Below the pieces are notes generated by a model that worked only from the letters and a program-made list of their open reading frames with translations, searched no databases and was not told the DNA's origin. Of a stretch of 22,546 bases of DNA, positions 2,917 through 17,136 are shown piece after piece. Every line of letters begins with the position of its first letter. The stretch's first letter is position 1. A program made the translations under genes and the position numbers. Source of the DNA: a virus; the IMG/VR virus record IMGVR_UViG_3300028197_001961, positions 1-22,546 of that record; one strand, given 5' to 3'.

Positions 2917-3082
2917 CATAGCACTCAAGGCAGCACACTTTGCTTCTGCCACACTCAATAATCCGTGGGGTGTTGGTAGTTTAAGTTTCATATTAGTCTT
3001 TGTTCCTGTTATAGGAATGTGGGCAGTCCACAAATACAACTGGCAGCATTGGGCACCATTTGACAGAGGGCACCAGAGGTAG
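2909..3082 (+). CDS. Small membrane protein (57 aa)
   Basis: A 57-aa ORF starting MGNIALKAAHFASATLNN, with a transmembrane segment at about residues 23-40 (V-G-S-L-S-F-I-L-V-F-V-P-V-I-G-M-W-A) and a Trp/His-rich tail (Y-N-W-Q-H-W). The start overlaps the preceding stop by 8 bases. Its last codons contain the -35 element and spacer of the next promoter (TTGACA at 3060-3065), so coding and promoter sequence overlap. Function unknown. Confidence 0.6.
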   Translation: MGNIALKAAHFASATLNNPWGVGSLSFILVFVPVIGMWAVHKYNWQHWAPFDRGHQR

Positions 3083-3088
3083 TATAAT
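3060..3088 (+). promoter_or_regulatory. Consensus sigma-70 promoter for the structured RNA
   Basis: TTGACA (3060-3065), exactly 17 bases, then TATAAT (3083-3088): a perfect consensus. The expected start is near 3095. The next gene begins only at 3445 and has its own promoter, so this one mainly transcribes non-coding sequence. Confidence 0.85.
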
Positions 3089-3094
3089 ATCAGA

Positions 3095-3385
3095 GTTGAT
3101 ATCAACTGCGGTACTTCCCTTCAGTAGGTTCAGAAGTATCGGCGATAGGAACCTACAGTTAAGGTCAGAGAAGTAAATGGAGCATGGGAGGTAATGTAAT
3201 CGTGTTTATCATAGGAATGTGCATTGACTTATGATATGGGTTATAACCGGATACCGCACCTGCCTTAACAACTCAACTTTGTATTTTTTGCTAGTTTAAG
3301 CATAGTTGAGTAGCAAAACTAGAATTGGGGAGAAGAGGGAACCGGTAATTTTAAATTGCCTTAGAGGTGTTAGACTCTTCTTTCA
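3095..3385 (+). ncRNA. Candidate structured, pseudoknotted non-coding RNA
   Basis: No plausible gene in about 360 bases, but dense pairing. The predicted start opens with the 12-base palindrome at 3095-3106. Perfect stems: TGCGGTA (3107-3113)/TACCGCA (3252-3258); GTAGGTTC (3124-3131)/GAACCTAC (3149-3156); GTTAAGG (3158-3164)/CCTTAAC (3263-3269), which crosses the first stem; TATCATA (3207-3213)/TATGATA (3230-3236); ACTCAACT (3271-3278)/AGTTGAGT (3304-3311), whose loop strand TTTTGCTA (3286-3293) can pair with TAGCAAAA (3311-3318); GGTAATT (3344-3350)/AATTGCC (3354-3360); AGAAGAG (3331-3337)/CTCTTCT (3375-3381). A 9-bp alternative, 3109-3117/3133-3141, competes with the first stem. From general knowledge, the manA and wcaG RNA motifs occur in cyanophages near sugar genes; identity with either is not shown here. 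Confidence 0.6.
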
Positions 3386-3393
3386 TTAAATAC

Positions 3394-3422
3394 TTGACTA
3401 CATAATCACAACACCTTATAAT
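3394..3422 (+). promoter_or_regulatory. Sigma-70-type promoter
   Basis: TTGACT (3394-3399), 17 bases, TATAAT (3417-3422). It lies 22 bases before the ATG at 3445 and presumably drives that gene plus the structured leader and glycan cluster beyond it. Confidence 0.85.
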
Positions 3423-3444
3423 ATACAGGTAATCAAAACGGGCA

Positions 3445-3666
3445 ATGGAACTGACTGAAAAATTCAAAACCAAGGATTTAGATACCCTTCGTAATGCTGC
3501 AAAAGGTGAAATTTTCTTAGATGTGAAAAGTCCAAAATTATTTAAGAAAGTTCGTAAATATTATGAGTCTAATGGAGTAATTTTTTCTGGAGAACCACTT
3601 GATGATTATGAAATCATGATGGACTGTTTGTATTCTGATCTAAAAATTTCTGTTGAGGTTGTTTGA
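3445..3666 (+). CDS. Small hypothetical protein between two structured RNAs
   Basis: A 73-aa soluble, highly charged protein starting MELTEKFKTKDLDTLRNAAKG, with a basic middle (P-K-L-F-K-K-V-R-K-Y-Y) and an acidic C-terminal part (D-D-Y-E-I-M-M-D). It has its own strong promoter 22 bases upstream and therefore a short untranslated leader; no clear Shine-Dalgarno. It sits between two RNA-structure-rich stretches just before the glycan cluster, so a regulatory role is tempting, but nothing in the sequence proves it. Family not recognised. Confidence 0.65.
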   Translation: MELTEKFKTKDLDTLRNAAKGEIFLDVKSPKLFKKVRKYYESNGVIFSGEPLDDYEIMMDCLYSDLKISVEVV

Positions 3667-3679: not shown

Positions 3680-3846
3680 AAGACTTTAAAAACCCTGGTG
3701 GAGTCATAAGACCCTATTATGAGTTTACGGCATCTCTCAAATGTCGTTGGTGCGGGTGAGTTACTACCGTCCAGTTTCTTGCTTCTGGTTAAAGAGCAAG
3801 TGGCGTGCATGGCAAGACCTTAGGGGGAGAGTTGCATAAACTCTCC
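3680..3846 (+). ncRNA. Candidate structured 5' leader of the glycan cluster (wcaG-motif-like position)
   Basis: A 218-base gap between genes with no coding signal. Stems seen: a TCATAA/TTATGA hairpin with loop GACCCTA (around 3704-3722); an outer ACGG (from about 3727)/CCGT (about 3767-3770) pairing; CTTGCT (3778-3783)/AGCAAG (3795-3800); GGAGAGTT (3826-3833)/AACTCTCC (3839-3846). The ACCCT in the first loop could reach the AGGGG at 3822-3826. The wcaG RNA motif is described from cyanophages upstream of exopolysaccharide genes such as NDP-sugar epimerases, exactly the gene that follows here. The match is by position and structure density, not by a model search. Confidence 0.5.
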
Positions 3847-3884: not shown

Positions 3885-4931
3885 ATGTCCGATTATAAAA
3901 AGACTGCACTAGTTCTTGGTGCGGGTGGATTTATTGGAAGTCACATGGTCAAACAACTTCGTTCTGAAGGATACTGGGTTCGGGGAGTTGATCTTAAGCA
4001 TCCTGAATATTCAGCATCTCATGCGAATGAGTTTATTGTTGGTGACTTGAGGGATGTTAATTTTGTAAAACGATGTGTTCGTTTTACTGGATACCTTGGA
4101 AACTTCTACAGAGATATTGTAGATAAGTTTGCCGAACCTTTTGATGAGATTTATCAGTTTGCTGCTGATATGGGTGGTGCAGGATTTGTATTCACTGGTG
4201 AGAATGATGCAGACATCATGCATAACTCTGTGTCCATCAATTTGAATGTTCTTGAGGAACAACGTAAACTGAATGAAATTACAGAGCAAAATAAAACTAA
4301 AATCTTTTACTCTGGATCGGCATGTATGTATCCAGAGCATAATCAACTAGACCCTGATAATCCTGATTGCCGTGAAGAAACAGCATATCCTGCAGCACCA
4401 GACTCTGAGTATGGATGGGAGAAACTATTCTCTGAGCGTCTCTACTTTGCTTACAATCGCAACCATGGCATCCCTGTTCGGGTTGCTAGGTATCATAATA
4501 TTTTTGGACCAGAGGGCACCTGGGACGGTGGAAGAGAGAAGGCACCATCTGCAATCTGCCGCAAGGTTGCTAAACTCCCGGAGTCGGGTGGATCTATCGA
4601 GGTGTGGGGAGATGGGTTACAAACTCGTTCCTTCCTGTTCGTTGATGAATGCATCGAAGCAACTAGAAGACTAATGGAGAGTGACTTTATGGGTCCTGTG
4701 AACATTGGTTCTGAAGAGATGGTAACTATCAATCAACTCGTAGATACTGCTGCTAAGGTTGCTAATAAGGAAGTCTCTAAGATTCATATTGATGGACCTC
4801 TTGGTGTACGTGGACGTAACTCTAATAATGATGTGATTCGTGAAAAGTTAGATTGGGATTATCAGATGACACTTAAGGAAGGTATTCGTTACACATATTA
4901 TTGGATTAGAGGGCAAATTAATGAGAAATAA
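3885..4931 (+). CDS. GDP-mannose 3,5-epimerase-like NAD-dependent epimerase
   Basis: A 348-aa extended SDR protein, full length for the family. The Rossmann loop G-A-G-G-F-I-G is at residues 12-18. It has the block A-A-D-M-G-G-A-G-F (93-101), S-A-C-M-Y-P with the epimerisation Cys147, the Y-G-W-E-K catalytic pair Tyr176/Lys180, and R-Y-H-N-I-F-G-P followed by G-G-R-E-K-A with Lys219. This combination is characteristic of GDP-mannose 3,5-epimerase, which converts GDP-D-mannose to GDP-L-galactose and GDP-L-gulose. W-G-D-G-L-Q-T-R-S-F (241-250) and G-V-R-G-R-N-S (307-313) also match. It is the first gene of the glycan cluster, after a structured leader and attenuator. It overlaps the next gene by 11 bases. 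It probably supplies a GDP-L-sugar to the fucosyltransferase-like enzymes of the cluster. Confidence 0.88.
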   Translation: MSDYKKTALVLGAGGFIGSHMVKQLRSEGYWVRGVDLKHPEYSASHANEFIVGDLRDVNFVKRCVRFTGYLGNFYRDIVDKFAEPFDEIYQFAADMGGAGFVFTGENDADIMHNSVSINLNVLEEQRKLNEITEQNKTKIFYSGSACMYPEHNQLDPDNPDCREETAYPAAPDSEYGWEKLFSERLYFAYNRNHGIPVRVARYHNIFGPEGTWDGGREKAPSAICRKVAKLPESGGSIEVWGDGLQTRSFLFVDECIEATRRLMESDFMGPVNIGSEEMVTINQLVDTAAKVANKEVSKIHIDGPLGVRGRNSNNDVIREKLDWDYQMTLKEGIRYTYYWIRGQINEK

Positions 4932-5730
4932 GTTTAATCTAGTTGGTGATACTTTTACTCATTTAACAGGAGGTAATAAAGGATACTCAGTACATGGAAA
5001 AGAATCCAAGTATATTGAATGGGTGAAGGATGGTGGAGAGGATACTTTTTATTTGGATAATACTATTAATTATGGTATTCGGGATCAAAGAGCAGGAATT
5101 AAGTATCTTTGGTTATTAGAGTCAAAATATATTAAACCGGGATTAGTTGAAAATATTCTTGATAATCGTCAAATTGTTGAGGATACTTATGGCACTGTTT
5201 TTACTCATGATCAAAGACTTCTTGCTTTAGGTGATAAGTATAAATGGGTTCCTGCTCAAGGATTTTGGATTAAAGAACCAAAGATTTATGAGAAATCAAA
5301 AATGATTTCTATGATTTCTTCTAACAAACAAATGTGTGAGGGACATAGAGTTCGTCTTGGGTGGGTTGATAAGATTGGTGAACAATTAGATTTATATGGT
5401 AGGGGTTTTAATGAAATTTCTACTAAGGAAGAAGGACTTTGCGACTATATGTTCTCAGTGGCAATTGAAAACGGACAGTATGAAACTTACTTTACGGAAA
5501 AACTTCTTGATTGTTTTGCGACGGGAACTATTCCTGTGTATCTTGGTGCTCCTGATATTGGAGATCATTTTAATAAAGATGGAATAGTTGATTTAACAGA
5601 CGTGTTTGACGTTTCGGAAGAAATATACTATAATAGGATGGACGCTATCAAGGATAATTTTGAAAGAGTAAAGAATATGGAAATATTGGAAGATTTTATC
5701 TGGGAGAAATATTTAAAAAATGAGTTTTAA
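4921..5730 (+). CDS. GT10 family (alpha-1,3-fucosyltransferase-like) glycosyltransferase
   Basis: A 269-aa protein. The C-terminal half carries the GT10 signature: F-S-V-A-I-E-N-G (178-185), Y-F-T-E-K-L-L-D-C-F (190-199), then G-T-I-P-V-Y-L-G-A-P (202-211). Before it, S-K-M-I-S-M-I-S-S-N-K (126-136) and L-D-L-Y-G-R-G (156-162) match the GDP-binding strand and donor loop. The enzymes transfer L-fucose from GDP-L-fucose to an acceptor sugar. No GDP-fucose synthesis genes are visible here, but a GDP-L-galactose-forming epimerase is directly upstream and overlapping, so an L-galactose donor is possible (inference). No membrane segment. It overlaps the following methyltransferase by 11 bases. Confidence 0.85.
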   Translation: MRNKFNLVGDTFTHLTGGNKGYSVHGKESKYIEWVKDGGEDTFYLDNTINYGIRDQRAGIKYLWLLESKYIKPGLVENILDNRQIVEDTYGTVFTHDQRLLALGDKYKWVPAQGFWIKEPKIYEKSKMISMISSNKQMCEGHRVRLGWVDKIGEQLDLYGRGFNEISTKEEGLCDYMFSVAIENGQYETYFTEKLLDCFATGTIPVYLGAPDIGDHFNKDGIVDLTDVFDVSEEIYYNRMDAIKDNFERVKNMEILEDFIWEKYLKNEF

Positions 5731-6373
5731 AGAAAATTTTTTCAAAGAAAATGAAATAAAGAATGTTCTCCACATTGGTGCAGATAGAGGTGGAGAACTT
5801 CCTCAATACAAAAGTATTGGTGTTGAAAATGTTGTTTGGGTGGAAGCAAATCCTGAAGTATATTGCGAACTCATAGAAAATATTAAAATTATGAATATTG
5901 ATGATGTCAATAGTTTAACATTCAATCAATTAATTTCTGATAAGGATGATGTAGAAACAGACTTTCACCTCTACTATGGATGGGATGCAGGACATCTTGT
6001 TGGGAATAAAGGTATGTCTAGTTTACTTAAAGCAAAAAATTCTAGTTGGGTTTCTGAATGTTATAAAGGTACTATTCAATTAAAATCTTCAACTGTTGAT
6101 ACCTTTTTAAAAACTAATAGATTGGATTATGATTTCGACCTTTTAAATATTGACACTCAAGGTGCTGAAATTAAGGTATTGAAAGGTGCTAATGATGTAC
6201 TAAAAATGGTGCAATATATAAACTGTGAGGTAACTTTTCATTCTGCAACCTATCAAGGAAACTCTACATTTGAAGAAGTGAATTCTTTATTAGAAACTTA
6301 TGGGTTCAAAGTTGTAGGTGTTGATAGATGTCTTGAAGGTAATTGGGGAGATGCTTTGTACATTAAGGAATAA
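5720..6373 (+). CDS. FkbM-type SAM-dependent methyltransferase
   Basis: A 217-aa class I methyltransferase of the FkbM type: N-V-L-H-I-G-A-D-R-G-G-E (15-26) as SAM motif I, V-W-V-E-A-N-P (39-45) as the acidic motif II, S-T-V-D-T-F-L in the middle, then L-L-N-I-D-T-Q-G-A-E-I-K-V-L-K-G, the hallmark of this family, and a C-terminal strand with Y-G-F-K-V-V-G-V-D. FkbM enzymes O-methylate sugars and other small-molecule hydroxyls. Its start lies inside the preceding GT10 gene. In this context it probably caps or decorates a glycan. Confidence 0.85.
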   Translation: MSFKENFFKENEIKNVLHIGADRGGELPQYKSIGVENVVWVEANPEVYCELIENIKIMNIDDVNSLTFNQLISDKDDVETDFHLYYGWDAGHLVGNKGMSSLLKAKNSSWVSECYKGTIQLKSSTVDTFLKTNRLDYDFDLLNIDTQGAEIKVLKGANDVLKMVQYINCEVTFHSATYQGNSTFEEVNSLLETYGFKVVGVDRCLEGNWGDALYIKE

Positions 6374-6375
6374 CT

Positions 6376-7116
6376 ATGAAAATGAAAATCAATTATCACT
6401 CTCAGGTTGGTCAAGATAAATTCGTTGCCAATGCTCTTAAATTTAAAAATAATGGATTCTTTGTAGAATTTGGATCACAAGATCCTATTAATATTAATAA
6501 TACATATACTTTAGAAAAAGAATTTGGATGGAAAGGTATAATGTTTGAGTGGGATGAAAAATATGCTCCACTATATGAAAAACATCGATCTGATGAAACT
6601 ACATATATTATTTCTGATGCAACTCAACTCAATTATAAAGAACTTTTTGATAAGTTAAATGTCCCAAATAATTTGGATTATTTGCAAATAGATTTAGAGT
6701 CTGGGATGATGACACCTCTAAACCTTTTGAAAAAATTGGATAATGAAATTTTGAACGATTATAAATTTGCTACAGTTACCTTTGAACATGATATCTATTG
6801 TTCTAGAGAGAATAGTAAAGACAATGTTGGATGCGCTCAAAATGGATGGGTTCCATTCAATCCTAAAAATTTTCATACTGTAAGAGAAGAATCTAGAAAA
6901 ATTTTTAAAGATCGAGGATATTTTTGTGTCTTTGAAGATATTAAGTGTAGTGAAGAATATCAAAATCCCTTTGAAGATTGGTGGGTTCATCCGGATTTGG
7001 TTGATATGGACCATATTCAAAATATTGTTGATATGAATAATGAAAATTATGTCAATAATGATGTGACTGGAGTATCTATTTCTGCACCTAATATAGTTTA
7101 TGAATTTGATGAATAA
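6376..7116 (+). CDS. FkbM-like methyltransferase (second type)
   Basis: A 246-aa protein beginning with H-S-Q-V-G-Q-D-K-F-V (8-17), then G-F-F-V-E-F-G-S-Q-D-P (27-37), N-N-T-Y-T-L-E-K (41-48) and F-G-W-K-G-I (50-55), the layout of the S-Q-x-G-Q-D-x-F-V group of FkbM methyltransferases. The usual motif G-x-N-D-G is changed to G-S-Q-D-P, so SAM binding may be altered. The conserved L-Q-I-D-L-E follows mid-protein. The long C-terminal part with W-V-P-F-N-P and D-W-W-V-H-P is unlike the first copy. It starts two bases after the previous stop, with GGAA upstream. Confidence 0.7.
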   Translation: MKMKINYHSQVGQDKFVANALKFKNNGFFVEFGSQDPININNTYTLEKEFGWKGIMFEWDEKYAPLYEKHRSDETTYIISDATQLNYKELFDKLNVPNNLDYLQIDLESGMMTPLNLLKKLDNEILNDYKFATVTFEHDIYCSRENSKDNVGCAQNGWVPFNPKNFHTVREESRKIFKDRGYFCVFEDIKCSEEYQNPFEDWWVHPDLVDMDHIQNIVDMNNENYVNNDVTGVSISAPNIVYEFDE

Positions 7117-7885
7117 GGAAAAAAAAACTTGTTTAGTAAAACAACCAGCAGGATTTGGAGATATTCTTTTTTGTCAAAAAATTGCAAAAATTCTTCAAAA
7201 AAATACTGAATATAAACAAATTGTATGGCCAGTTTCACCCATATATTCATATATTCAAGAATATATGGGAAATGATAATCTTTATTTTCCTAGAGAAGAT
7301 GAAGATTTTCCTCATAAAAACATATACGAATCAAATAATTATAATTTTTTACAAACTGATAATTGTTTATATGTTCCATTGCAAACGGCAAATTATATTT
7401 TATCACCTTGCACTTGTCATGGAAATCCTAGAGCTCACGGGCACATTAAATACAATTTTTGCAATATAGATTATAATGATTGGAAAAATTATCTTACATT
7501 CGAACGATTTGATGATAGAGAAAATGATTTGGTAAAGTATCTTGGAATTGATCTTAATGAACCTTATAATCTAATTAATAAAAGTTGTGGTACTCCACCA
7601 CACTGTAAGTATCGTGAAAATATTAAACCAGATAATGAACATAAGAACATATATATGGATCTCACTTCTGGATTCTCTATGTTTGATTGGTGTAAAGTTT
7701 TTGAACATGCACAAGAAATTCATATTATGGAGACAGGAGTTTGGTATATACTTGATAAATTGGGATTAGAAAATGTATATGTATATTCCAAATATACCAG
7801 TGATTGGAATCCTGAAAAAAATTTTCCAGATGATTTTTCATATATGAAAGATAATTGTAATAAAAACTGGAGACTTATAAATTGA
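7109..7885 (+). CDS. Glycosyltransferase-like protein (GT9/GT-B-like)
   Basis: A 258-aa protein. The N-terminus has K-Q-P-A-G-F-G-D-I-L-F-C-Q-K-I-A-K (about 11-27), a G-x-G-D-x-L loop like that at the start of GT9 heptosyltransferases. The C-terminal third has I-H-I-M-E-T-G-V-W-Y, then the G-L-E-N-V-Y-V-Y-S-K strand. The central region is diverged and rich in Asn/Tyr. Codon use is extremely AT-rich. The ATG at 7109 is chosen, 8 bases inside the previous gene (7100 is an alternative). It is a plausible transferase or deacetylase-like processing enzyme for glycans; the call rests mainly on the N-terminal loop and context. Confidence 0.5.
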   Translation: MNKEKKTCLVKQPAGFGDILFCQKIAKILQKNTEYKQIVWPVSPIYSYIQEYMGNDNLYFPREDEDFPHKNIYESNNYNFLQTDNCLYVPLQTANYILSPCTCHGNPRAHGHIKYNFCNIDYNDWKNYLTFERFDDRENDLVKYLGIDLNEPYNLINKSCGTPPHCKYRENIKPDNEHKNIYMDLTSGFSMFDWCKVFEHAQEIHIMETGVWYILDKLGLENVYVYSKYTSDWNPEKNFPDDFSYMKDNCNKNWRLIN

Positions 7886-8529
7886 AAAATATTTTTATTA
7901 CTGGTTGTGGTGATGGTTTGGGAAAAACTCTTTTGGAAACCTCGGAGGAATGTGGATATAATGTATTTCCTCATTTTAGGGAAAATAAAAATTTTATTTC
8001 TGGTGATATAAACAAAAAAAATATTTTAGAAAAACTTCCAAAATTTTTGAAAATGAATTCTATAGATGTTTTTATTAATAATGCAGCAATCTATAAGAAA
8101 AAATCTTTAGTAGATACCACTGATGATGAAATAGAAAATATTATTAATACAAATCTTCTTTCTCAAATTTTGATTACAAAGAGAGTATATTCTTTTTTCA
8201 AAGAACGTGGGTCTGGACTAATTATTAATATAAATTCTTTATCTGGAAAAATTTCTTCTGCTAATGAATCTATATACTGTGCATCTAAATCTGGGTTGTA
8301 CTCATTTTCAAAATCTCTGCAATTGGAATCAATTGATAGTAATATAGAAATTGTTGATCTTTTTCCAGGAGCAATGAAAACAAAAATGACTAGGGATAGG
8401 ACTAATTATAATACTCTTATAGATACTAAAGATGTTTCAAAAGTTGTTTTTGATATTATTTTTAAACATACTAACCTCTATATGAATGAAATAGTAATTC
8501 GTAAAAAAAATAAAAAAAGTGGAGATTGA
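7882..8529 (+). CDS. Short-chain dehydrogenase/reductase (SDR)
   Basis: A 215-aa classical SDR. The cofactor loop is T-G-C-G-D-G-L-G (7-14), N-N-A-A is at 66-69, and the catalytic Ser119, Tyr132 and Lys136 lie in N-S-L-S-G and Y-C-A-S-K. F-P-G-A-M-K-T-K-M-T follows at 161-170, as in active family members. The start is a TTG that shares TTGA with the previous stop. It is slightly short (usually about 250 aa), with the C-terminal substrate lid reduced. It probably oxidises or reduces a sugar or sugar precursor in the glycan pathway; the substrate is unknown. Very AT-rich like its neighbours. Confidence 0.82.
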   Translation: MKNIFITGCGDGLGKTLLETSEECGYNVFPHFRENKNFISGDINKKNILEKLPKFLKMNSIDVFINNAAIYKKKSLVDTTDDEIENIINTNLLSQILITKRVYSFFKERGSGLIININSLSGKISSANESIYCASKSGLYSFSKSLQLESIDSNIEIVDLFPGAMKTKMTRDRTNYNTLIDTKDVSKVVFDIIFKHTNLYMNEIVIRKKNKKSGD

Positions 8530-8534
8530 CTCTA

Positions 8535-9164
8535 ATGGGATTATTGACTGAACATAGATTGAACTATTACATAGATGAATATCAATTGGAATATTATTTT
8601 GAAACGGGAACGGGTCAAGGAGAATGTTTAGATTATGCAACAAGATATCCCTTCAAAGAATATTGGACAGTTGATATTGATGAAGAACTTATTGAAAAAT
8701 GTTATGAGAAAATGAAGTTTTATGAAAAAAATATAAATTTTTTGATCGGCAAATCCACTGAAATTATTGATGAATATATTCCAAATATTCCTAAGGAATC
8801 TCCAACATTATTTTTTTTAGATGCACATTTTCCTGGAGCAGACTTTAAGAAATGTACATATGAAGAATCTATCAGGGAGTACGGGCAAGATGCTTTTCCT
8901 TTAGAAGAAGAAGTCAATTTAATCCAAAAGCATAGGGATATTTCTAAAGATGTTTTTATCATTGACGATTTAGTACTCTATCAAAAAGATATTGAAGTTG
9001 AGCATGTAAAAAATGGACACAAATGGGAATATGATTGGTTGCAGGAAGAACTGAATTTGCAAACAGATTCGAAATTTTTGTATGAAAAATTTGAAAAGAC
9101 ACACGAATTTAAAGTTGATTTGAGAAGTCAAGGTTATCTTATTATTACTCCAAAGAAAAAATGA
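8535..9164 (+). CDS. Putative SAM-dependent methyltransferase
   Basis: A 209-aa protein with Y-F-E-T-G-T-G-Q-G-E-C-L near the start (SAM motif I), a strand ending W-T-V-D-I-D (motif II) and T-L-F-F-L-D-A-H-F-P-G mid-protein, a D-A-H motif as in macrocin-type sugar O-methyltransferases. V-F-I-I-D-D-L is next. The ATG at 8535 has GGAG at about 8520-8523; a TTG at 8526 overlapping the previous stop is the alternative. It overlaps the following dehydrogenase by 4 bases (ATGA). The role as a sugar O-methyltransferase is inferred from motif order and context. Confidence 0.65.
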   Translation: MGLLTEHRLNYYIDEYQLEYYFETGTGQGECLDYATRYPFKEYWTVDIDEELIEKCYEKMKFYEKNINFLIGKSTEIIDEYIPNIPKESPTLFFLDAHFPGADFKKCTYEESIREYGQDAFPLEEEVNLIQKHRDISKDVFIIDDLVLYQKDIEVEHVKNGHKWEYDWLQEELNLQTDSKFLYEKFEKTHEFKVDLRSQGYLIITPKKK

Positions 9165-10174
9165 AAGCAGCAATATTAGAACAGATTGATGCACCTCTTG
9201 CTATTAGAGATGTTGAACTGACGGAATTGAAAGTAGGTCAAGTCCTTGTAAAGGTTCTTGTTAGTGGTCTTTGTGGAGCACAACTTCATGAGATACGTGG
9301 TCATAAAGGTAATGTAAAGTTTCTTCCTCACCTAATGGGACATGAGGGATGTGGTATTGTAGATAAAGTCGGACCTGGTGTAACTACTGTGAACTTAGGT
9401 GATAAGGTTGTAATGCACTGGAGACCTGGTTCTGGTATTGAAGCACCCTTTCCTTCATATGTTCTTGATGGAAAAAGTATGAGTAGTGGTAAATGCACTA
9501 CTCTTAGTGAGTATTCAATTGTATCTGAAAATAGATTAACTACTGTCCCACAAGATACTCCAGAAGATCTATGTGCGATTCTTGGTTGTGCTCTCACGAC
9601 TGCTATGGGTATCATTGATAATGAAGTTGACCTTAAGTTTGGTGAAAGTGTTGTTGTTATTGGTTGTGGTGGTGTAGGACTTAATCTAATTCAAGCTGCA
9701 GCACTCAAAAGTGCTTGCCCTATTGTTGCAATTGATTGTAGTAAATCCAAAAAGGATCTTGTTTTTGCTGCAGGAGCATCAGTTTTTGCTGCAGAACTCA
9801 AAGAACTTGGTGGTAAGTATGATGTAATCATTGATACTACAGGTATTCCTGGAGTTATTAGTGATGCTATTGCACACTTGTCTGGAAAAGGACGTATTAT
9901 TCTTGTAGGACAACCTGCACCAGGACGAGGTATAGAAGTTATGAATGCCATTAATTTGTTTAGTGGTATGGGTCAGACCATAAAGGCAACTCAGGGGGGT
10001 AAGACCAATCCTACAGAAGATATTCCTCGTTATGTTCGTATGCATCAAGAAGGTATTCTTAGTATTGAACAATTCGTAACTCATAGATTTAAATTGGATC
10101 AGGTAAACGAAGCATTCGACTTGCTTAGAAGTGGAAATGCTGGTAGAATCATTATCGAAATAGGAGTAGTATGA
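9161..10174 (+). CDS. Zinc-dependent medium-chain dehydrogenase (MDR)
   Basis: A 337-aa MDR enzyme. Catalytic zinc ligands are visible: Cys38 in L-C-G-A-Q, His61-Glu62 in M-G-H-E-G and Cys143 in L-G-C-A-L. The cofactor loop G-C-G-G-V-G is at 168-173, with Asp192 at the end of the next strand favouring NAD over NADP. The lobe that holds the structural zinc (four Cys) lacks the Cys cluster and reads H-W-R-P-G-S-G instead. It starts within the previous stop (ATGA) and itself overlaps the next gene by 4 bases, so it is tightly coupled to a TPP-dependent enzyme. Its codon use is less AT-rich than the genes just before it. The substrate is unknown; a polyol or sugar alcohol is plausible. Confidence 0.85.
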   Translation: MKAAILEQIDAPLAIRDVELTELKVGQVLVKVLVSGLCGAQLHEIRGHKGNVKFLPHLMGHEGCGIVDKVGPGVTTVNLGDKVVMHWRPGSGIEAPFPSYVLDGKSMSSGKCTTLSEYSIVSENRLTTVPQDTPEDLCAILGCALTTAMGIIDNEVDLKFGESVVVIGCGGVGLNLIQAAALKSACPIVAIDCSKSKKDLVFAAGASVFAAELKELGGKYDVIIDTTGIPGVISDAIAHLSGKGRIILVGQPAPGRGIEVMNAINLFSGMGQTIKATQGGKTNPTEDIPRYVRMHQEGILSIEQFVTHRFKLDQVNEAFDLLRSGNAGRIIIEIGVV

Positions 10175-11376
10175 TGCGGAAGGTATGGACAAAAGAAGAG
10201 TTGGTTGCCTTTGAGGATAGAATAGGTGATCTTTACTTAGATAATCAGTTACCATTTCTTTTCCATCTTTCTGGTGGCAATGAAGATCAACTGATTGAAA
10301 TTTTTAAAGACATTAAAGATGGTGATTATGTGATCTCCAATCATAGAAATCATTATCATGCTCTCCTACATGGAGTTCCTCCTGAAGAATTGGAGGAAAA
10401 AATTAAAGATGGTAGGAGTATGTTTGTATATGATCGTGAACGTAACTTTTTCCTCTCTGCAATCATCGGAGGCACTCCTGCAATTGCTGCAGGGATTGCA
10501 TGGGCACTAAAACGTAAGGGATCTACTCAAAGAGTATGGTGTTTTGTTGGGGATGGAACAGAAGATAATGGACATCTCTCTGAAGCAGTTAGATATGTTG
10601 ATGGTCATGAATTGCCTTGCACTTTTGTGATTGAAAGTAATAATCGATCTTGTGAAGCATCTAACACTGATCGTTGGGGAAAGACCGCACATCCAGAATG
10701 GAACTCTTCTTCCGTAATTCGTTATCAATATGACTGTCTTTACCCTCACTGTCGTAAACCAGGAATGATTGATCTAGGTGAAGCGCAAAAGTATAAGAAA
10801 ACTGATGAAGAATACTTTCCACCTCTAGAAGAGTTTGTTTATCCTAATCATGATATGGATGAAAGTCTTTCTTATAAGGAAGCAATGTCTCAGTCTATGA
10901 CAGAACTTGGTAATGAAGGTGCTATCTTCATTGGATATAATGTTTTTTATGGTAATGCAATTGGCACTCTGAAAAACGTTTCTGATGATCAAAAACTAGA
11001 GACACCTGTGGCAGAGAATCTGATGGCAGGACTTGCTATTGGTATGTCATTTGAGGGATTTACACCTGTTATTTACTTTGAACGTCATGACTTTATGTTG
11101 GTTGCAGCAGATGCAATCATCAATCACATTGATAAGATTGAAAGGATATCTCATGGTGAATATAAAGTTCCTGTAATCATTCGTGCAGTCACTGCAGATG
11201 CTGGTCCCTTCTACTCTGGCATTACACATGCTCAAGACTTCACGAATGTGTTCCGAGAAGCAGTTAGTTTCCCCGTTATTGATCCTGTTACTGGGTCTGA
11301 TGTTGTTAATGCCTTCAGAGGTGCTAAAGAAAGTGGTAGACCTGCAATGATTATTGAAAGAAAGTCGAGGTATTGA
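10171..11376 (+). CDS. TPP-dependent E1-like enzyme with fused alpha and beta domains
   Basis: A 401-aa protein. Residues about 1-200 resemble E1-alpha of 2-oxoacid dehydrogenases: S-N-H-R-N-H-Y-H-A-L-L-H-G (56-68), then the TPP motif G-D-G (127-129) followed 27 residues later by N-N (157-158). Residues about 232-401 resemble E1-beta: Y-K-E-A-M-S, E-T-P-V-A-E-N-L-M-A-G (277-287) with Glu282 in the position that activates TPP, and P-V-I-I-R-A-V. Both halves are shorter than the free-standing subunits (about 330-400 aa each). No E2/E3 partners are seen, so decarboxylation or ketol transfer without lipoyl transfer is more likely. It overlaps the MDR gene and probably acts with it to make an unusual sugar or acyl unit. 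Family sure, reaction unknown. Confidence 0.82.
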   Translation: MMRKVWTKEELVAFEDRIGDLYLDNQLPFLFHLSGGNEDQLIEIFKDIKDGDYVISNHRNHYHALLHGVPPEELEEKIKDGRSMFVYDRERNFFLSAIIGGTPAIAAGIAWALKRKGSTQRVWCFVGDGTEDNGHLSEAVRYVDGHELPCTFVIESNNRSCEASNTDRWGKTAHPEWNSSSVIRYQYDCLYPHCRKPGMIDLGEAQKYKKTDEEYFPPLEEFVYPNHDMDESLSYKEAMSQSMTELGNEGAIFIGYNVFYGNAIGTLKNVSDDQKLETPVAENLMAGLAIGMSFEGFTPVIYFERHDFMLVAADAIINHIDKIERISHGEYKVPVIIRAVTADAGPFYSGITHAQDFTNVFREAVSFPVIDPVTGSDVVNAFRGAKESGRPAMIIERKSRY

Positions 11377-11377
11377 T

Positions 11378-12103
11378 ATGCTAGAGTTTAATAATTGTCC
11401 ATATAGAAACAAACCCTATATGGGTCCACATAGTGAGTGGGTTGTAGATCTTTATCAAAAATATTTTGGAGATATTACTGATGGATTTTTAGTAGAAATT
11501 GGGGTTGGTTGTGTCCTTGATTGGCAAAAAATGGGAACACCTAAAATGCTTGATTGGGATAATGATGAAATTATTAGAGGAGAAAGTCATACTTTAGAAT
11601 TGCTTGAGAATGGATGGACTGGTATTTACATTGAAAGTATTCATGAGTTGATAACAAATGAATTGGATCCTCTTCTACAAAGAATTCTTCCGGAGGAGCA
11701 GTATAAAAAAATAAAGATGGTAAAATGTGGTGCTTCTGATAAGAAAGAAGTAGTGCAGATCTATAATCAAGAATCTCTAAAACCAAGTAAAGATACTGTA
11801 GTTGATGAAATAATTCCATACAATTACCAAGGACGTAAACTTTTTTGTGATGCAACTTCTATCATTCTCAATGATAATGAATGTCCTTTTGATATTGATT
11901 TTATGTTGATTGATGTTGAAGGATATGAAGTTAATGTTCTCAATGGTTTAGATTTTTCTAAGCATCGACCAAAGTTGATGTTGATTGAGATATCTAATAC
12001 ACCTTTTCAAACAATAAATGATATGATTTCTGGTGACTATGTTTTTATTAGACATGATGGATTGAATGCAATGTTTGTACATAAAGATTTTTCAAAAGAA
12101 TGA
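11378..12103 (+). CDS. FkbM-type methyltransferase (third copy)
   Basis: A 241-aa protein. SAM motif I is G-F-L-V-E-I-G-V-G (36-44), with L-E-L-L-E-N-G-W-T-G-I-Y-I-E-S (motif II) after it. The family hallmark F-M-L-I-D-V-E-G-Y-E-V-N-V-L-N-G-L lies near residues 172-188, followed by P-K-L-M-L-I-E-I-S. The ATG at 11378 follows the previous stop by one base, with AGG upstream; a TTG at 11354 inside the previous gene is less likely. It overlaps the next gene by 4 bases. A role in O-methylating glycan residues is inferred. Confidence 0.82.
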   Translation: MLEFNNCPYRNKPYMGPHSEWVVDLYQKYFGDITDGFLVEIGVGCVLDWQKMGTPKMLDWDNDEIIRGESHTLELLENGWTGIYIESIHELITNELDPLLQRILPEEQYKKIKMVKCGASDKKEVVQIYNQESLKPSKDTVVDEIIPYNYQGRKLFCDATSIILNDNECPFDIDFMLIDVEGYEVNVLNGLDFSKHRPKLMLIEISNTPFQTINDMISGDYVFIRHDGLNAMFVHKDFSKE

Positions 12104-12912
12104 AGACATATCTATCTGTAGGAATAGGAGACATGTGTTTTCTTGATTCTATCCTCACAAAAAAAGAAAAAGAGAGTATCTCTGAGATTTATTGGGCATG
12201 TAGGTTTGGATATGTGATCAAAGAATTGCTTGAGAGTAATCCTGACTATCCAAATCTTACTTCTCATCATACTATAGATGATGAAACTGGAAAAAAATAT
12301 ATGGCACAACTTGATCCAGTTGCTGTTCCATTCTGGCACTTTAGACCCGACTTTGAAAAAAATTTTGAAGTAGGATTAAATTTGTTTGACATTAAAAATG
12401 AATGGAATAATCAAAATCTTCAAATTGTAGATGCGGCATTTTTATTTACCGATGAAAGTAGGTTATTTCAAGAATCTTCTATATTAAAATATTCTAAAAA
12501 AATTGATGAGGATTATATTCTTTTTCATTACCCTACATCTACAAGACCAAGAAGTGATATTGCAGACATTTCTAAATCTGATATGGAATTTATAAACACT
12601 TTATCTAAAGAAACTGGTTTAGTGGTAAAGATTATTTCTGATCATTATGTAGATCTTGATATTGATGATCAAGAATTGTTCTATAATATTCCAATTACTG
12701 ATGTGAGGGATTTGGTTGCAAACTGTAATTACTATGTTGGATGTGATTCTTTCTGTGCTCATTTGGCATCTAACATTTTACCGAAAGAAAATATTTTCAT
12801 TAAACTATCTCCCAACTTTAGTGGTTGGAATACATGGTTACTGAGGGCATTTATGCCACATTCACCAGAAGATGTCAAGCAGTTTTATAAATCTTACATT
12901 GGTAGACCATGA
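12100..12912 (+). CDS. GT9-like glycosyltransferase
   Basis: A 270-aa protein. It starts MKTYLSVGIGDMCFLDSI, with the G-I-G-D loop of GT9. The C-terminal domain has I-L-F-H-Y-P-T-S-T-R-P-R, the strand V-V-K-I-I-S-D-H, and then I-T-D-V-R-D-L-V-A-N-C-N-Y-Y-V-G-C-D-S-F-style elements (D-V-R-D-L, Y-V-G-C-D-S, C-A-H-L-A-S) that match the nucleotide-sugar site of ADP-heptose transferases. It lies directly before three ADP-heptose biosynthesis genes, so a heptosyltransferase role is attractive. It is shorter than typical WaaC/WaaF (about 320-350 aa). Confidence 0.7.
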   Translation: MKTYLSVGIGDMCFLDSILTKKEKESISEIYWACRFGYVIKELLESNPDYPNLTSHHTIDDETGKKYMAQLDPVAVPFWHFRPDFEKNFEVGLNLFDIKNEWNNQNLQIVDAAFLFTDESRLFQESSILKYSKKIDEDYILFHYPTSTRPRSDIADISKSDMEFINTLSKETGLVVKIISDHYVDLDIDDQELFYNIPITDVRDLVANCNYYVGCDSFCAHLASNILPKENIFIKLSPNFSGWNTWLLRAFMPHSPEDVKQFYKSYIGRP

Positions 12913-13637
12913 GTATCTTAGTCATTGGAGAAACATGCAGAGATGTATTTGTCTACTGTAATTCTAATAGATTATGTCCTGAGGCACCTGTTCCGGTATT
13001 GAACATCGTTGATCAGAGAGAAAATCCTGGCATGGCTGGCAATGTTCGTAGGAACATTGAAAGTCTGTCTGGAAAAGTAATTGATATTGCTACGAATAAT
13101 AACTGGCATGAGATTGTAAAGACAAGATACGTTCATAAAGAAAGTAATCATATGTTTTTTAGGGTTGATACGACTCAATCAATTCCTAGGATCAACTTGA
13201 AAGAACTTGATTTTGATTATGATTTGATTGTAATTTCTGATTATAATAAGGGTTTCTTATTGGAAGAAGACATTCAATACATTTCTTCTAATCATTCAAA
13301 TGTCTTTATCGACACGAAGAAGATCATGGGTGACTGGGTAAATGAAGCAAGGTTTATTAAAATCAATGACTATGAATATCGCAATTCTGAATCATATCTA
13401 ACTGATGATATGAAGCAAAAAATTATTCATACTATGGGTGGAAAGGGTTGTGAGTTTAAAGGTAAAAAATATCCAACCAAAAAAGTGGAAGTAAAAGATC
13501 TTTCTGGAGCAGGAGATACTTTCATGGCTGGACTTGTCGTGAAGTTTGTAGAGACTGATGACATTGTAAAGAGTATTAAGTATGCAAATGAATGTGCATC
13601 TAAAGTTGTATCGCAAAAAGGAGTTGCTGTATTATGA
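12909..13637 (+). CDS. hldE: D-glycero-beta-D-manno-heptose-7-phosphate kinase (HldE domain 1 type)
   Basis: A 242-aa PfkB-family kinase. R-L-C-P-E-A-P-V-P-V (21-30) and G-M-A-G-N-V-R-R-N-I (41-50) correspond to the R-L-S-P-E-A-P-V-P-V and G-G-A-A-N-V blocks of HldE. The phosphate loop and catalytic base are G-A-G-D-T-F (200-205, Asp203). It phosphorylates heptose 7-phosphate at C1. It is shorter than the bacterial kinase domain (about 310 aa), mainly in the middle. The nucleotidyltransferase half, fused to it in most bacteria, is here a separate gene at 14419, with HldD between. Start and stop overlap the neighbours by 4 bases each. Confidence 0.85.
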   Translation: MSILVIGETCRDVFVYCNSNRLCPEAPVPVLNIVDQRENPGMAGNVRRNIESLSGKVIDIATNNNWHEIVKTRYVHKESNHMFFRVDTTQSIPRINLKELDFDYDLIVISDYNKGFLLEEDIQYISSNHSNVFIDTKKIMGDWVNEARFIKINDYEYRNSESYLTDDMKQKIIHTMGGKGCEFKGKKYPTKKVEVKDLSGAGDTFMAGLVVKFVETDDIVKSIKYANECASKVVSQKGVAVL

Positions 13638-14422
13638 TTATTCTTACTGGTTCGCAAGGTTTCATTGGTAAAAAATTTCTCAAGGTACTTCAAGATGCTG
13701 GTAAAGAAGTGGTAGAAGTGGAGAAGGATAATAGTTGGCATTGGATAACATACTTTGATAATTGGGATAAGGTGGAATGCATTATCCATCAAGGAGCAAT
13801 GTCTTCTACTACAAATACAAATCTAAAACAAATATTTACTTTTAATGTAGAATATAGTGAGTGGTTGTTTTCTCAAGCAGCAAAGCATGGTATTCCTGTT
13901 AAATATGCATCCTCTGCATCTGTCTATGGTAATCAGCAAGGTATTATCAATCCTTTAAACTATTATGCATTGTCGAAAGTAACTACTGACTATTGGGTTC
14001 AAGATCATATCGATGAGTTTTCTCTTATTCAAGGATTTCGATACTTCAACGTATATGGTGATGGAGAAGAAGATAAGGGGGATCAAGCAAGTCCGGTTAG
14101 TAAGTTTACGGAGCAAGTTCAAAAGACTGGTAAACTTAAATTGTTTGAGGGATCTGATAAGTTCCTGAGAGATTTTATTTGTGTTGATGATATTGTTGAT
14201 TTAGTTCTTAATAACAGTAAGATCTCTGGAATCTATGATTTGGGAACTAGCAAACCAGTCAGTTTCGAGCATGTTGCAGAATGCGTTGCAAAGAGGTATA
14301 ATGGTGAAGTAGAATATATCCCATTCCCAAAACACCTAAAAGGTAAGTATCAAGATTATACTTGTGCAAAGAAAGAATGGGGTAATTATCAATTTACTAC
14401 TATTGGGGATTATTTGCAATGA
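13634..14422 (+). CDS. hldD: ADP-L-glycero-D-manno-heptose 6-epimerase
   Basis: A 262-aa extended SDR. The cofactor loop is G-S-Q-G-F-I-G (6-12). I-I-H-Q-G-A-M-S-S-T-T (50-60), Y-A-S-S-A-S-V-Y-G (91-99), the catalytic pair Tyr111/Lys115 in Y-A-L-S-K, G-F-R-Y-F-N-V-Y-G (134-142), L-F-E-G-S-D-K-F-L-R-D-F and the late E-Y-I-P-F-P-K-H-L-K-G-K-Y-Q are all HldD blocks. It is shorter than E. coli HldD (310 aa), mostly in the linker after the N-terminal strands. It converts ADP-D,D-heptose to ADP-L,D-heptose, the donor for inner-core LPS. Flanked by and overlapping the two halves of HldE. Confidence 0.9.
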   Translation: MIILTGSQGFIGKKFLKVLQDAGKEVVEVEKDNSWHWITYFDNWDKVECIIHQGAMSSTTNTNLKQIFTFNVEYSEWLFSQAAKHGIPVKYASSASVYGNQQGIINPLNYYALSKVTTDYWVQDHIDEFSLIQGFRYFNVYGDGEEDKGDQASPVSKFTEQVQKTGKLKLFEGSDKFLRDFICVDDIVDLVLNNSKISGIYDLGTSKPVSFEHVAECVAKRYNGEVEYIPFPKHLKGKYQDYTCAKKEWGNYQFTTIGDYLQ

Positions 14423-14817
14423 AAACAATCTGGACAAATGGATGCTTTGACATTCTTCATCCAGGACATATCGAACTATTCAAGGCATGTAAATCTCTTG
14501 GTGATCGTTTGATTGTTGGTATTGATACCGATGAAAAAGTGAAGTCTGACAAAGGATTTGAAAGACCTATCAATGATATCTGTCATCGATACTCTATTCT
14601 TAGTGCAATTAGATACATTGATATTGTTCATGTTTTTGGTAGTAGAATTGAATTGGAACAACTTATTGAATTTTATAATCCGGATGTATTAGTTGTGGGT
14701 GGTGATTGGAGAAAAGGTGATATTGTTGGATCAGATCATGCAAAAGAAGTACGATTTTTTAATCGGGTTGGTGGATATTCATCAACTAACCTCATCAATA
14801 GGATTAGAAAACTATGA
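14419..14817 (+). CDS. hldE: D-beta-D-heptose 1-phosphate adenylyltransferase (HldE domain 2 type)
   Basis: A 132-aa nucleotidyltransferase of the cytidylyltransferase fold. G-C-F-D-I-L-H-P-G-H (8-17) carries the H-x-G-H site, V-V-G-G-D-W (around residues 92-97) and the C-terminal Y-S-S-T-N-L-I-N-R-I-R matching the S-S-T-x-I-I-x-R-I motif. Length is right for the free-standing domain. It adenylates heptose 1-phosphate to ADP-heptose. With the kinase at 12909 and HldD at 13634 it gives three of the five steps from sedoheptulose 7-phosphate. Confidence 0.88.
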   Translation: MKTIWTNGCFDILHPGHIELFKACKSLGDRLIVGIDTDEKVKSDKGFERPINDICHRYSILSAIRYIDIVHVFGSRIELEQLIEFYNPDVLVVGGDWRKGDIVGSDHAKEVRFFNRVGGYSSTNLINRIRKL

Positions 14818-15140
14818 GATATGTTATAGATATTGATGGGACTATTTGTTTTTCTGGCAAGGATAAAAAAAGATATACTCACGCAGTTCCGAGATGGGAT
14901 AGAATTCAAGTGATAAATAAATTATATGATGAAGGCAATTATGTCGTTTATTTGACTGCTAGAGGCATGGGTAGATTTGAAAACTCTCAAGAACTTGCTA
15001 AAAAAGAATTCTACGATTTCACCAAATCTCAAATAGAGTCTTGGGGATGTAAGTTTCATGAACTTCATTTAGGTAAACCCTCATCTGATTACTATATTGA
15101 CGATAAAGGTATCAAAGACAATGACTTCTTCCGAGATTAA
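14814..15140 (+). CDS. Small HAD-family phosphatase
   Basis: A 108-aa HAD protein: D-I-D-G-T with nucleophile Asp6 and Asp8, Y-L-T-A-R (46-50) with motif II Thr48, Lys88 in L-G-K-P, and D-Y-Y-I-D-D-K-G (92-99) as the metal-binding motif. It has no cap domain insertion beyond a short loop (C1 region Y-T-H-A-V-P-R-W), so it probably acts on an accessible sugar phosphate. Overlapping the heptose genes, it could replace GmhB, which removes the 7-phosphate of heptose 1,7-bisphosphate, but GmhB is about 190 aa with zinc Cys residues that are absent here. It overlaps the next gene by 20 bases. Confidence 0.72.
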   Translation: MRYVIDIDGTICFSGKDKKRYTHAVPRWDRIQVINKLYDEGNYVVYLTARGMGRFENSQELAKKEFYDFTKSQIESWGCKFHELHLGKPSSDYYIDDKGIKDNDFFRD

Positions 15141-15477
15141 ATTTGTTCCTAAAGGATGGGGACATGAAAAATGGATAGTCAATACGGATGAGTATTGCGG
15201 AAAACTCCTCTATTTTAATGAGGGGAAAAAATGCTCCTGGCATTATCACAAAATAAAAGATGAAACTTTCTATCTTCAATCAGGCAAACTTCTTTTATAT
15301 TATAGTGATATTGATAGTATTGAAGATGCAAAGAATATTATATTAGATCCAGGAGATAAATTTCATATCTATCGAGGACTTAGACATCAAATGATTGCGA
15401 TTGAATCTTCAGAATTATTTGAATTTTCTACACAACATCTTGACAAAGATAGTTATCGTATCTTAAGAGGAGACTAA
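15121..15477 (+). CDS. Cupin-domain protein (mannose-6-phosphate isomerase C-terminal-like)
   Basis: A 118-aa single cupin. Motif 1 carries the metal ligands His41, His43 and Glu48 in W-H-Y-H-K-I-K-D-E, followed by Gly55; motif 2 is P-G-D-K-F-H-I-Y-R-G-L-R-H-Q with His89 as the fourth ligand. V-P-K-G-W-G-H-E (9-16) at the start is typical of the cupins attached to mannose-6-phosphate isomerase/GDP-mannose pyrophosphorylase. The ATG at 15121 is within the previous gene. It could be a sugar-phosphate isomerase or epimerase feeding the glycan pathway; the substrate is not visible. Confidence 0.75.
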   Translation: MTSSEIKFVPKGWGHEKWIVNTDEYCGKLLYFNEGKKCSWHYHKIKDETFYLQSGKLLLYYSDIDSIEDAKNIILDPGDKFHIYRGLRHQMIAIESSELFEFSTQHLDKDSYRILRGD

Positions 15478-16328
15478 TGGCAATATCATATAATAGATTG
15501 GGTTCTAATGGAAGACTTGGAAATCAAATGTTTCAATACTCTGCTCTAAGGGGAATTGCAAAACATCATAATTATGATTGGATGATTCCACATCCAAATC
15601 AATATGGGACAGGTAATTATGGACTGTTCGAATGTTTCCAAATGAGTTCGGTAAGAGAAAGTAATTTTGGAATCCTTCAAACGCAAAAAAATATTGTAAC
15701 AGGTCAATTTCATTTTAGTGAAGAATTTTTTAAGAATTGTCCTGACAATGCGAACATTCATGATTATTTTCAAACGGAGAAATATTTTAATAATATAGAA
15801 GATTTAATTAGATCTGATTATACTTTTAAAAAAAATATTGTAGATGCATGTAAAGACATTTTTGATGAATTGAAAAATCCAATTTTCATTCATGTAAGAA
15901 GGGGTGATTATGTCAATCAACCACAAAATCATCCTCCATGTCCAGTTTCTTATTATGAAAAATCATTAAAATATTTTGATGATGATTGTGAAGTATTAAT
16001 TTTTTCTGACGATATTGATTGGTGCAAGAATCAAGAATTTTTTAACGGAGATAGGTTTTTATTTTCGGAATTTGAAGATAGATACGATCATTTATCTGAA
16101 ACCAATGATGGCAATATAAAATCTTTAATTCCTTACTATGATCTTTGTATGATGTCTATGTGTAATGGTGGTATAATAGCTAATAGTTCTATGAGTTGGT
16201 GGGGTGCTTGGTTGCAAACAAATCCTACGCAACCTATTATAAGTCCACAACCATGGTTCGGAAAAAATTACGACCATTTTAATATGAATGATCTAATTCC
16301 TGATAGATGGATGATCCAAGATGTATGA
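15477..16328 (+). CDS. GT11 family (alpha-1,2-fucosyltransferase-like) glycosyltransferase
   Basis: A 283-aa protein with all GT11 blocks: G-R-L-G-N-Q-M-F-Q-Y (12-21), I-H-V-R-R-G-D-Y (138-145) for GDP binding, L-I-F-S-D-D-I-D-W-C (174-183) and I-I-A-N-S-S-M-S-W-W-G-A-W (233-245). GT11 enzymes add L-fucose from GDP-L-fucose in alpha-1,2 linkage. It resembles the gene at 17968 closely in these blocks, so the two look like paralogues. Starts on the last base of the cupin stop codon and overlaps the next gene by 8 bases. Confidence 0.92.
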   Translation: MAISYNRLGSNGRLGNQMFQYSALRGIAKHHNYDWMIPHPNQYGTGNYGLFECFQMSSVRESNFGILQTQKNIVTGQFHFSEEFFKNCPDNANIHDYFQTEKYFNNIEDLIRSDYTFKKNIVDACKDIFDELKNPIFIHVRRGDYVNQPQNHPPCPVSYYEKSLKYFDDDCEVLIFSDDIDWCKNQEFFNGDRFLFSEFEDRYDHLSETNDGNIKSLIPYYDLCMMSMCNGGIIANSSMSWWGAWLQTNPTQPIISPQPWFGKNYDHFNMNDLIPDRWMIQDV

Positions 16329-17136
16329 CTTAACTTTTCTCATTCCAACAAGGATCGAAACTGATGATCGATTGAGAAATATTATTTCGTCAGTCTCCTA
16401 TCTATTAAAGCATATTCCTGCTAAAATTATTGTAAAGGAAGTATCTGATAGGCCCACTTTTAAATTTAGAGCAATCCCAGAAATAAAAAAATATGTCAAT
16501 ATATCAAATCTAAATTATCTTTATGAAGAATCAAAGGAACCTTTGTTTTGCAAAAGTAAAATTTTAAATGATCTTATAGTTGCTAGCGACACTAAAGTAG
16601 TAGCAAATTATGATGCAGACTGTATTCTTCCTTTGTCTTCATATCACTATGCATATGATATGATTGCTACAAATAAAGCAGATGTTGTTTATCCTTATTC
16701 TTGTGGGGTATATCAATGGAAAACTGATTACAATAAAGAAATATATAAGAAATTTATTTCCGAGTTAGATATTTCTGTTTTGGATAAACAAAAAACTTTA
16801 TCAACATCTACAATCGGATGGTCTCAGTTTGTTAATAGGGAAAAGTATATTGACTCTTATATGATGAACGAGAACTTTGTATCATGGGGATGTGAAGATG
16901 ATGAATTTTATTATAGAATGAGTGTTCTTGGAAATCGTATTGCTAGAGTGAATGATTATGTTTATCACTTAGAACATTCTAGAACTTACAACTCTTGGTT
17001 TAGTAGTCCTAATTTTAATGATAATTTTAATTTGTGGAATACTATTAAAATTTTTGACAAAAATCAATTAATGAATTATTATATGGAGCAAGAGTATTTA
17101 AAAAAAAGAAAAAACCAATTAACAATATATAAATGA
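16321..17136 (+). CDS. GT2/GT-A fold glycosyltransferase
   Basis: A 271-aa protein. It starts M-Y-D-L-T-F-L-I-P-T-R-I, the usual GT-A first strand, with the metal-binding D-A-D at 98-100 (V-V-A-N-Y-D-A-D) and W-G-C-E-D-D-E-F-Y-Y-R at 189-199, the acceptor/base block seen in the galactosyltransferase/chondroitin-synthase group (W-G-x-E-D-x-E). C-terminal E-H-S-R-T-Y. It is a cytosolic retaining-or-inverting GT-A enzyme that probably extends the glycan; donor unknown. It overlaps the following epimerase by 4 bases. Confidence 0.82.
   Translation: MYDLTFLIPTRIETDDRLRNIISSVSYLLKHIPAKIIVKEVSDRPTFKFRAIPEIKKYVNISNLNYLYEESKEPLFCKSKILNDLIVASDTKVVANYDADCILPLSSYHYAYDMIATNKADVVYPYSCGVYQWKTDYNKEIYKKFISELDISVLDKQKTLSTSTIGWSQFVNREKYIDSYMMNENFVSWGCEDDEFYYRMSVLGNRIARVNDYVYHLEHSRTYNSWFSSPNFNDNFNLWNTIKIFDKNQLMNYYMEQEYLKKRKNQLTIYK

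What the first reader, a model, noticed from the sequence alone, without database searches (positions are those of the whole stretch)
3060..3385. Independent ~290-nt RNA with several crossing stems behind a perfect promoter
TTGACA-N17-TATAAT is read directly, and the transcript would run through about 350 bases without a gene before the next promoter. At least six perfect stems of 7-8 bp are present. 3107-3113/3252-3258 and 3158-3164/3263-3269 cross each other, and 3271-3278/3304-3311 has a loop strand that pairs just outside it: two separate pseudoknots. The 9-bp alternative pairing 3109-3117/3133-3141 would break the first one, as in a switch. This may be a manA- or wcaG-type RNA known from cyanophages, or something undescribed.
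Basis: partly seen in the sequence, partly recalled or inferred. Interest (0 to 1): 0.8.

Follow-up and report, generated by a model that had tools for sequence, protein, structure and literature searches.

The report
Unnamed 5'-terminal pseudoknot RNA of cyanophages
The flagged stretch begins with a small, knotted RNA that is missing from the RNA-family database, sits at the very start of one transcript in many ocean cyanobacterial viruses (usually just before a tRNA gene) and keeps its shape through matched mutations; what it does is not yet known.

Summary
The promoter and the stems are real: eight perfect stems of 7 bp or more against 2.0 expected. The RNA is not manA or wcaG and matches no Rfam 15 family.

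The window holds three RNA modules between two promoters. Module A (3095-3156) is a new, widespread cyanophage RNA: hairpin P0, then an H-type pseudoknot (P1/P2) with near-invariant loops. P1 forms in full in 105 of 107 distinct sequences and all six pairs covary. A further pair is G-C in 105 sequences and U-A in 90; targeted scans found no real single-sided change.

In 173 of 199 distinct loci the -10 box ends exactly 6 nt before P0's first G, whether P0 spans 12 or about 260 nt, so the transcript is predicted to start on P0's first base. Each isolate genome found to carry it has one copy. Short-loop forms precede tRNA-Arg/Pro by 2-6 nt; long-loop forms mostly precede mRNAs (purM, pstS, gp32).

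Best mechanism, inferred and untested: a 5'-end-locking leader that shields the transcript. A trans-acting small RNA is the main rival. Modules B and C have few relatives.

The parts
3060..3088 (+). promoter 1, TTGACA-N17-TATAAT; predicted start G3095
   Evidence: 12/12 consensus; -10 box ends 6 nt before the fold in 173/199 distinct loci
3095..3156 (+). module A: new 5'-terminal pseudoknot RNA
   Evidence: model R1 67 bits; covariation; no Rfam match
3095..3106 (+). P0 hairpin, 3095-3098/3103-3106
   Evidence: covaries between loci, closing pair G-C in 104/104
3107..3111 (+). UGCGG; C3109 and G3110 pair with G3141 and C3140, G3111.U3139 (G.G in nearly all relatives)
   Evidence: pair 3110/3140 is G-C in 105 and U-A in 90 sequences, no real single-sided change
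3112..3138 (+). P1, 3112-3117/3133-3138, crosses P2
   Evidence: 6/6 pairs in 105 of 107 distinct copies; all six pairs covary
3118..3123 (+). loop 1, CCUU plus CA (long form)
   Evidence: CCUU required in the searches; CCUU versus CCUUNN tracks the cargo
3124..3156 (+). P2, 3124-3131/3149-3156
   Evidence: 8/8 pairs in 105 of 107 distinct copies; four pairs change on both sides
3139..3148 (+). loop 3, UCGGCGAUAG (usually GCGGCGAUAG)
3158..3269 (+). module B: closing stem 3158-3164/3263-3269, hairpin 3207-3213/3230-3236
   Evidence: same locus in several contigs; one compensatory pair in the hairpin, seen by eye in L179
3270..3385 (+). module C: possible pseudoknot and a 3' hairpin 3331-3337/3375-3381
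   Evidence: only L179 and L202 besides the window; no covariation test possible
3394..3422 (+). promoter 2, TTGACT-N17-TATAAT
   Evidence: 11/12; conserved in S-SKS1 and IMG/VR relatives
3445..3666 (+). 73-aa ORF behind promoter 2, conserved at this locus
   Evidence: 68 related loci

Best explanation
Module A is a phage-borne, 5'-terminal RNA domain that most likely works as a structural 5' cap. Shown by comparison: transcription is predicted to start on the first base of helix P0; P0 is closed by an invariant G-C pair and abuts a compact H-type pseudoknot (P1 with a G.G mismatch, P2) with near-invariant loops. Inferred: this leaves the 5'-triphosphate nucleotide paired and packed against the pseudoknot, so enzymes that need a free 5' end (pyrophosphohydrolase, RNase E, RNase J) engage poorly, and the transcript behind it (a tRNA operon or one mRNA operon) is protected during infection. 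Where a tRNA follows 2-6 nt later, RNase P would cut the domain off as a stable RNA of about 65 nt. In this window the domain heads a three-module leader (A-B-C) of about 290-330 nt reading toward the 73-aa gene.
For: Fold: P1 complete in 105/107 copies, all six pairs covary, no shuffle reaches the observed values; outer pair G-C 105, U-A 90, single-sided 0. Start: -10 box exactly 6 nt before P0 in 173/199 distinct loci, independent of P0 length, which is what a 5'-end lock requires. Almost always followed by cargo: tRNA 2-6 nt away or an ORF start (median 29 nt), rarely a terminator (6 of 114, four of those inside tRNA-like sequence). It replaces the native small leader hairpin of gp32 in L037 compared with P-HM1.
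Against: No measured transcript, start site or half-life. One copy per isolate genome is odd for a general stabiliser. A leader that RNase P removes should not need to protect a tRNA. The near-invariant loops look like more than a stabiliser needs.
Confidence: 0.38

Rival explanations
1. Module A is a trans-acting small RNA. It starts at its own promoter, is released by RNase P from the tRNA behind it (or by another nuclease from an mRNA), and acts on a host or phage target through its conserved loops.
For: One copy per isolate genome with unrelated partners: tRNA-Arg, tRNA-Pro, purM, pstS, gp32, small ORFs. Both ends would be neat: start on P0, tRNA 2-6 nt after P2. Conserved unpaired loops.
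Against: Never seen with its own terminator right behind it; loop-1 length tracks the cargo type, which a free RNA would not need, though common ancestry may explain this.
Confidence: 0.3
2. Module A is a co-transcriptional element that binds RNA polymerase and makes it read through distal terminators, in the way of the put RNA of phage HK022 (own knowledge).
For: Always at the start of the transcript, indifferent to the cargo, compact fold with conserved loops.
Against: An exact start on P0 is not needed for this; P0 of up to about 260 nt would delay folding; no read-through shown.
Confidence: 0.13
3. Module A is a ligand-sensing leader (riboswitch) or a protein-bound operator of the gene behind it.
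For: H-type pseudoknot with near-invariant loops; leader position before purM, pstS and gp32.
Against: Partners share no pathway; half of the loci precede tRNAs; no terminator or Shine-Dalgarno sequestration seen.
Confidence: 0.12
4. Module A is a ribozyme acting at or near its own 5' end or at its 3' border.
For: Compact pseudoknotted core with about 20 near-invariant nucleotides and a peripheral helix that tolerates large insertions.
Against: No match to any ribozyme family in Rfam; nothing is transcribed 5' of the fold.
Confidence: 0.05

Closest known systems
wcaG (RF01761), manA (RF01745) and PhotoRC-II (RF01717) RNAs
   Same: Structured leader RNAs of T4-like cyanophages (PMC2864571); wcaG and PhotoRC-II occur elsewhere in this window.
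   Different: No match of module A to any of them even at E<=5; different cargo; start-locked architecture.
GOLLD and ROOL RNAs
   Same: Phage-encoded structured RNAs of unknown function, often near tRNA islands; GOLLD has a conserved 3' part and a variable 5' part (PMC12286853), as module A has a conserved core and a variable P0 domain.
   Different: Hundreds of nt long versus a 50-nt core; no Rfam match; oligomer formation not examined.
T4 gene 32 leader pseudoknot (own knowledge)
   Same: H-type pseudoknot in a leader of a T4-like phage; module A precedes gp32 in L037 and L080.
   Different: Most copies precede tRNAs or other genes; gp32 leaders of other cyanophages read here lack it; different loops.
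Exoribonuclease-resistant RNAs (xrRNA) of flaviviruses and 5' stem-loop mRNA stabilisers (own knowledge)
   Same: Proposed way of working: a pseudoknotted fold that shields a 5' end.
   Different: No homology claimed; no nuclease test done.
HK022 put antitermination RNA (own knowledge)
   Same: Promoter-proximal folded RNA that would act on whatever lies behind it.
   Different: No sequence or fold comparison was made; no terminator read-through shown.
T4 RNA C and RNA D (own knowledge)
   Same: Small stable RNAs of unknown function made with a phage tRNA cluster.
   Different: Not compared by sequence here.

Membership tests
manA RNA (RF01745) | covariance-model match at or above the gathering score | tested here: not met
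   no match in 3000-3450 up to E 5
wcaG RNA (RF01761) | covariance-model match at or above the gathering score | tested here: not met
   no match in 3000-3450; the true wcaG copy is at 3719-3814
GOLLD or ROOL RNA | covariance-model match | tested here: not met
   no match for the window copy or the large-P0 copy L394
GOLLD or ROOL RNA | homo-oligomeric assembly | not testable with these tools
   needs biochemistry
Riboswitch | expression platform (terminator or RBS sequestration) and a consistent gene class | tested here: not met
   6 of 114 loci with a terminator-like site nearby, most of them inside tRNA-like sequence; cargo shares no pathway. RBS sequestration was judged only by spacing.
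Riboswitch | ligand binding | not testable with these tools
   needs in-line probing
T4-type gp32 operator | pseudoknot in the gp32 leader as a rule | tested here: not met
   only L037 and L080; leaders of other cyanophages lack it
tRNA or tmRNA (modules B, C) | ARAGORN call | tested here: not met
5'-end-protecting RNA (works-like claim only) | transcript starts on the first base of the fold | tested here: inconclusive
   predicted from promoter spacing in 173/199 distinct loci; no start site measured
5'-end-protecting RNA (works-like claim only) | resistance to 5'-dependent nucleases | not testable with these tools
   needs RppH, RNase E and RNase J assays

The most novel reading that the evidence does not exclude
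Cyanophages carry a new RNA class in which the initiating pppG is itself a structural element of a pseudoknotted core (a genetically encoded RNA cap), kept at one copy per genome, moved between tRNA operons and mRNAs, and enlarged in some phages by peripheral domains of 60-260 nt.
Probability: 0.35. Interest if true: 0.85.

Novelty: new variant of a known kind. Interest (0 to 1): 0.72.

Why it matters
A structured RNA with decisive covariation, spread over many marine T4-like cyanophages including the isolates P-SSM2, S-SM2, Bellamy and S-SKS1, has no Rfam entry and is not annotated in those records. Its predicted start on the first base of the fold is an unusual, directly testable design, and its link to tRNA operons bears on the open question of what phage RNAs beside tRNA islands do. 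Cultured phage-host pairs exist, so the function can be tested.

Tried and rejected
manA, wcaG and every other Rfam family. One 290-nt fold: rejected because S-SKS1 lacks 3157-3387 and relatives show modules A, B and C in different combinations. Group I intron core (suggested by crossing helices): considered by eye and rejected, since the order and spacing of helices do not fit and the empty site is not a split gene. HDV-type ribozyme: rejected by topology (no helix between the crossing strands). Anti-Shine-Dalgarno mimicry by ...CCUCCUU: rejected because the bases before CCUU vary freely. A gp32 operator in general: rejected because the gp32 leaders of other cyanophages and a pelagiphage, read by eye, show no copy and searches of their genomes found only weak hits. 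Host origin: the pattern in 84,980 bacterial and archaeal genomes gave 7 hits, none with P1 and P2 by eye. tRNA-like modules B and C: ARAGORN negative. Literature searches found no description of module A; the library holds open-licence papers only.

Full report
OBSERVATION. The window is a fragment of a T4-like cyanophage; its nearest isolate at this locus is Synechococcus phage S-SKS1. The promoter at 3060-3088 is a perfect consensus match and a second near-perfect one lies at 3394-3422. In 3095-3385 there are eight perfect stems of 7 bp or more where shuffled sequence gives 2.0. No Rfam model matches 3000-3450 even at E<=5, while the whole-window search finds wcaG at 3719-3814 and PhotoRC-II at 21347-21442.

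THREE MODULES, NOT ONE FOLD. S-SKS1 matches 3041-3156 and 3388-3440 but has nothing between, and two other phages continue after 3152 straight into a tRNA-Pro gene. At the same locus in 68 IMG/VR contigs the interval holds module A alone, A plus B, A plus B plus C (this window and two others), B' alone, A plus tRNA-Pro, or other small genes. Module B closes with 3158-3164/3263-3269; module C is almost unknown elsewhere.

MODULE A IS A NEW RNA FAMILY. The fold is hairpin P0, UGC(G/U)G, P1, CCUU(NN), P2, A, P1', G(C/A)GGCGAUAG, P2', so that P1 and P2 cross. On 39 aligned sequences P1, which was not used to make the alignment, is 100% paired, all six of its pairs change on both sides, and no shuffle matches any of the five measures. 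Across 107 distinct copies P1 is complete in 105 (that parser required at least 4 of 6). Shuffling P1 partners among the 44 distinct helices leaves 9.8 complete on average instead of 42.

A PREDICTION TESTED. Isolates of the S-B43 group showed UGCUG with GAGGCGA in place of UGCGG with GCGGCGA, suggesting that P1 continues past a G.G mismatch. I scanned for both-changed, 5'-changed-only and 3'-changed-only versions. After parsing for P1 and P2 the real copies were 90 (all U-A), 0 and 0, against 105 G-C copies. One degenerate single-sided copy, L174 (UGCAG), is known from another search.

THE START IS PART OF THE FOLD. In 173 of 199 distinct loci a promoter's -10 box ends exactly 6 nt before P0's 5' strand; no other offset exceeds 13 (separate counts). 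This holds whether P0 spans 12 nt, as here, or up to about 260 nt, with 9-10 bp P0 helices enclosing large extra domains. For the 172-184 nt cases P0 pairs by only 5-7 bp and spans the end of an upstream gene, so those assignments are less secure. By ordinary promoter spacing (own knowledge) transcription starts on P0's first G. No start site has been measured.

CONTEXT. In 11 isolate genomes with a strong match there is one strong copy each; several cyanophages lack it. Short-loop copies are followed by tRNA in 92 of 103 distinct loci, long-loop copies in 12 of 92. The tRNAs are mostly Arg(UCU), some Pro(UGG), 2-6 nt after P2. Other partners are purM (including P-SSM2, about 20 nt before the start codon), pstS, peptide deformylase, gp32, an antitoxin-like ORF and unknown ORFs; names other than the P-SSM2 annotation are read from translated starts and were not checked by profile search. 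Because the loop-length/cargo link could be one old split, it is only suggestive.

MECHANISM. The fold, the covariation, the promoter rule and the single copy in isolates are shown. Function is inferred. The exact start, the indifference to what P0 contains, and the position as leader of one transcript fit best with a 5'-end lock that hinders 5'-dependent decay. The single copy and the changing partners keep a trans-acting small RNA close behind. An RNA-polymerase-directed element, a ligand sensor and a ribozyme are less likely. In this window the U3139 variant, the short P0 and the missing tRNA make the copy slightly atypical, but it still scores 67 bits.

LIMITS. IMG/VR copies were collected by patterns that fix parts of the core, so invariance of those parts is partly by construction; P1, P0, loop-1 length, promoter spacing and the single-versus-double-change test are not affected in that way. 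Contigs are fragments, so copy number rests on the isolates. Novelty rests on Rfam 15 and an open-licence paper library.

Noticed in passing
window 3719-3814: A wcaG RNA (RF01761, 79.5 bits) lies upstream of the 348-aa nucleotide-sugar epimerase-like ORF at 3885-4931.
   Followed up: partly
window 21347-21442: A PhotoRC-II RNA (RF01717, 80.2 bits) lies near the right end, upstream of what is usually psbA.
   Followed up: no
window 3885-19624: A long run of sugar-nucleotide, glycosyl- and methyltransferase-like ORFs, probably surface polysaccharide genes (by eye).
   Followed up: no
L394, L457, L418, L461, L360, L365, L338 (upstream of the core): P0 of module A encloses an extra structured domain of about 90-260 nt, closed by 9-10 bp of P0; no Rfam match for L394.
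   Followed up: partly
L463 about 1430-1690 (P-SSM2 56.7-56.9 kb), L464, L465, L466: The same P0 domain stands without module A in an unannotated gene-free stretch of P-SSM2 and marine single-cell viruses, next to other repeated-looking modules: perhaps another new modular RNA.
   Followed up: partly
L468 734-813 (P-SSM2 about 144.0-144.1 kb): The reference phage P-SSM2 carries module A, unannotated, just before purM.
   Followed up: yes
L407 1177-1375: A manA RNA (RF01745, 176 bits) lies on a contig that also carries module A at another place.
   Followed up: no
L156, L157, L163, L178, L182, L203: Module B' stands alone behind the same promoter, without module A, so the slot seems to exchange small RNA modules.
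   Followed up: partly
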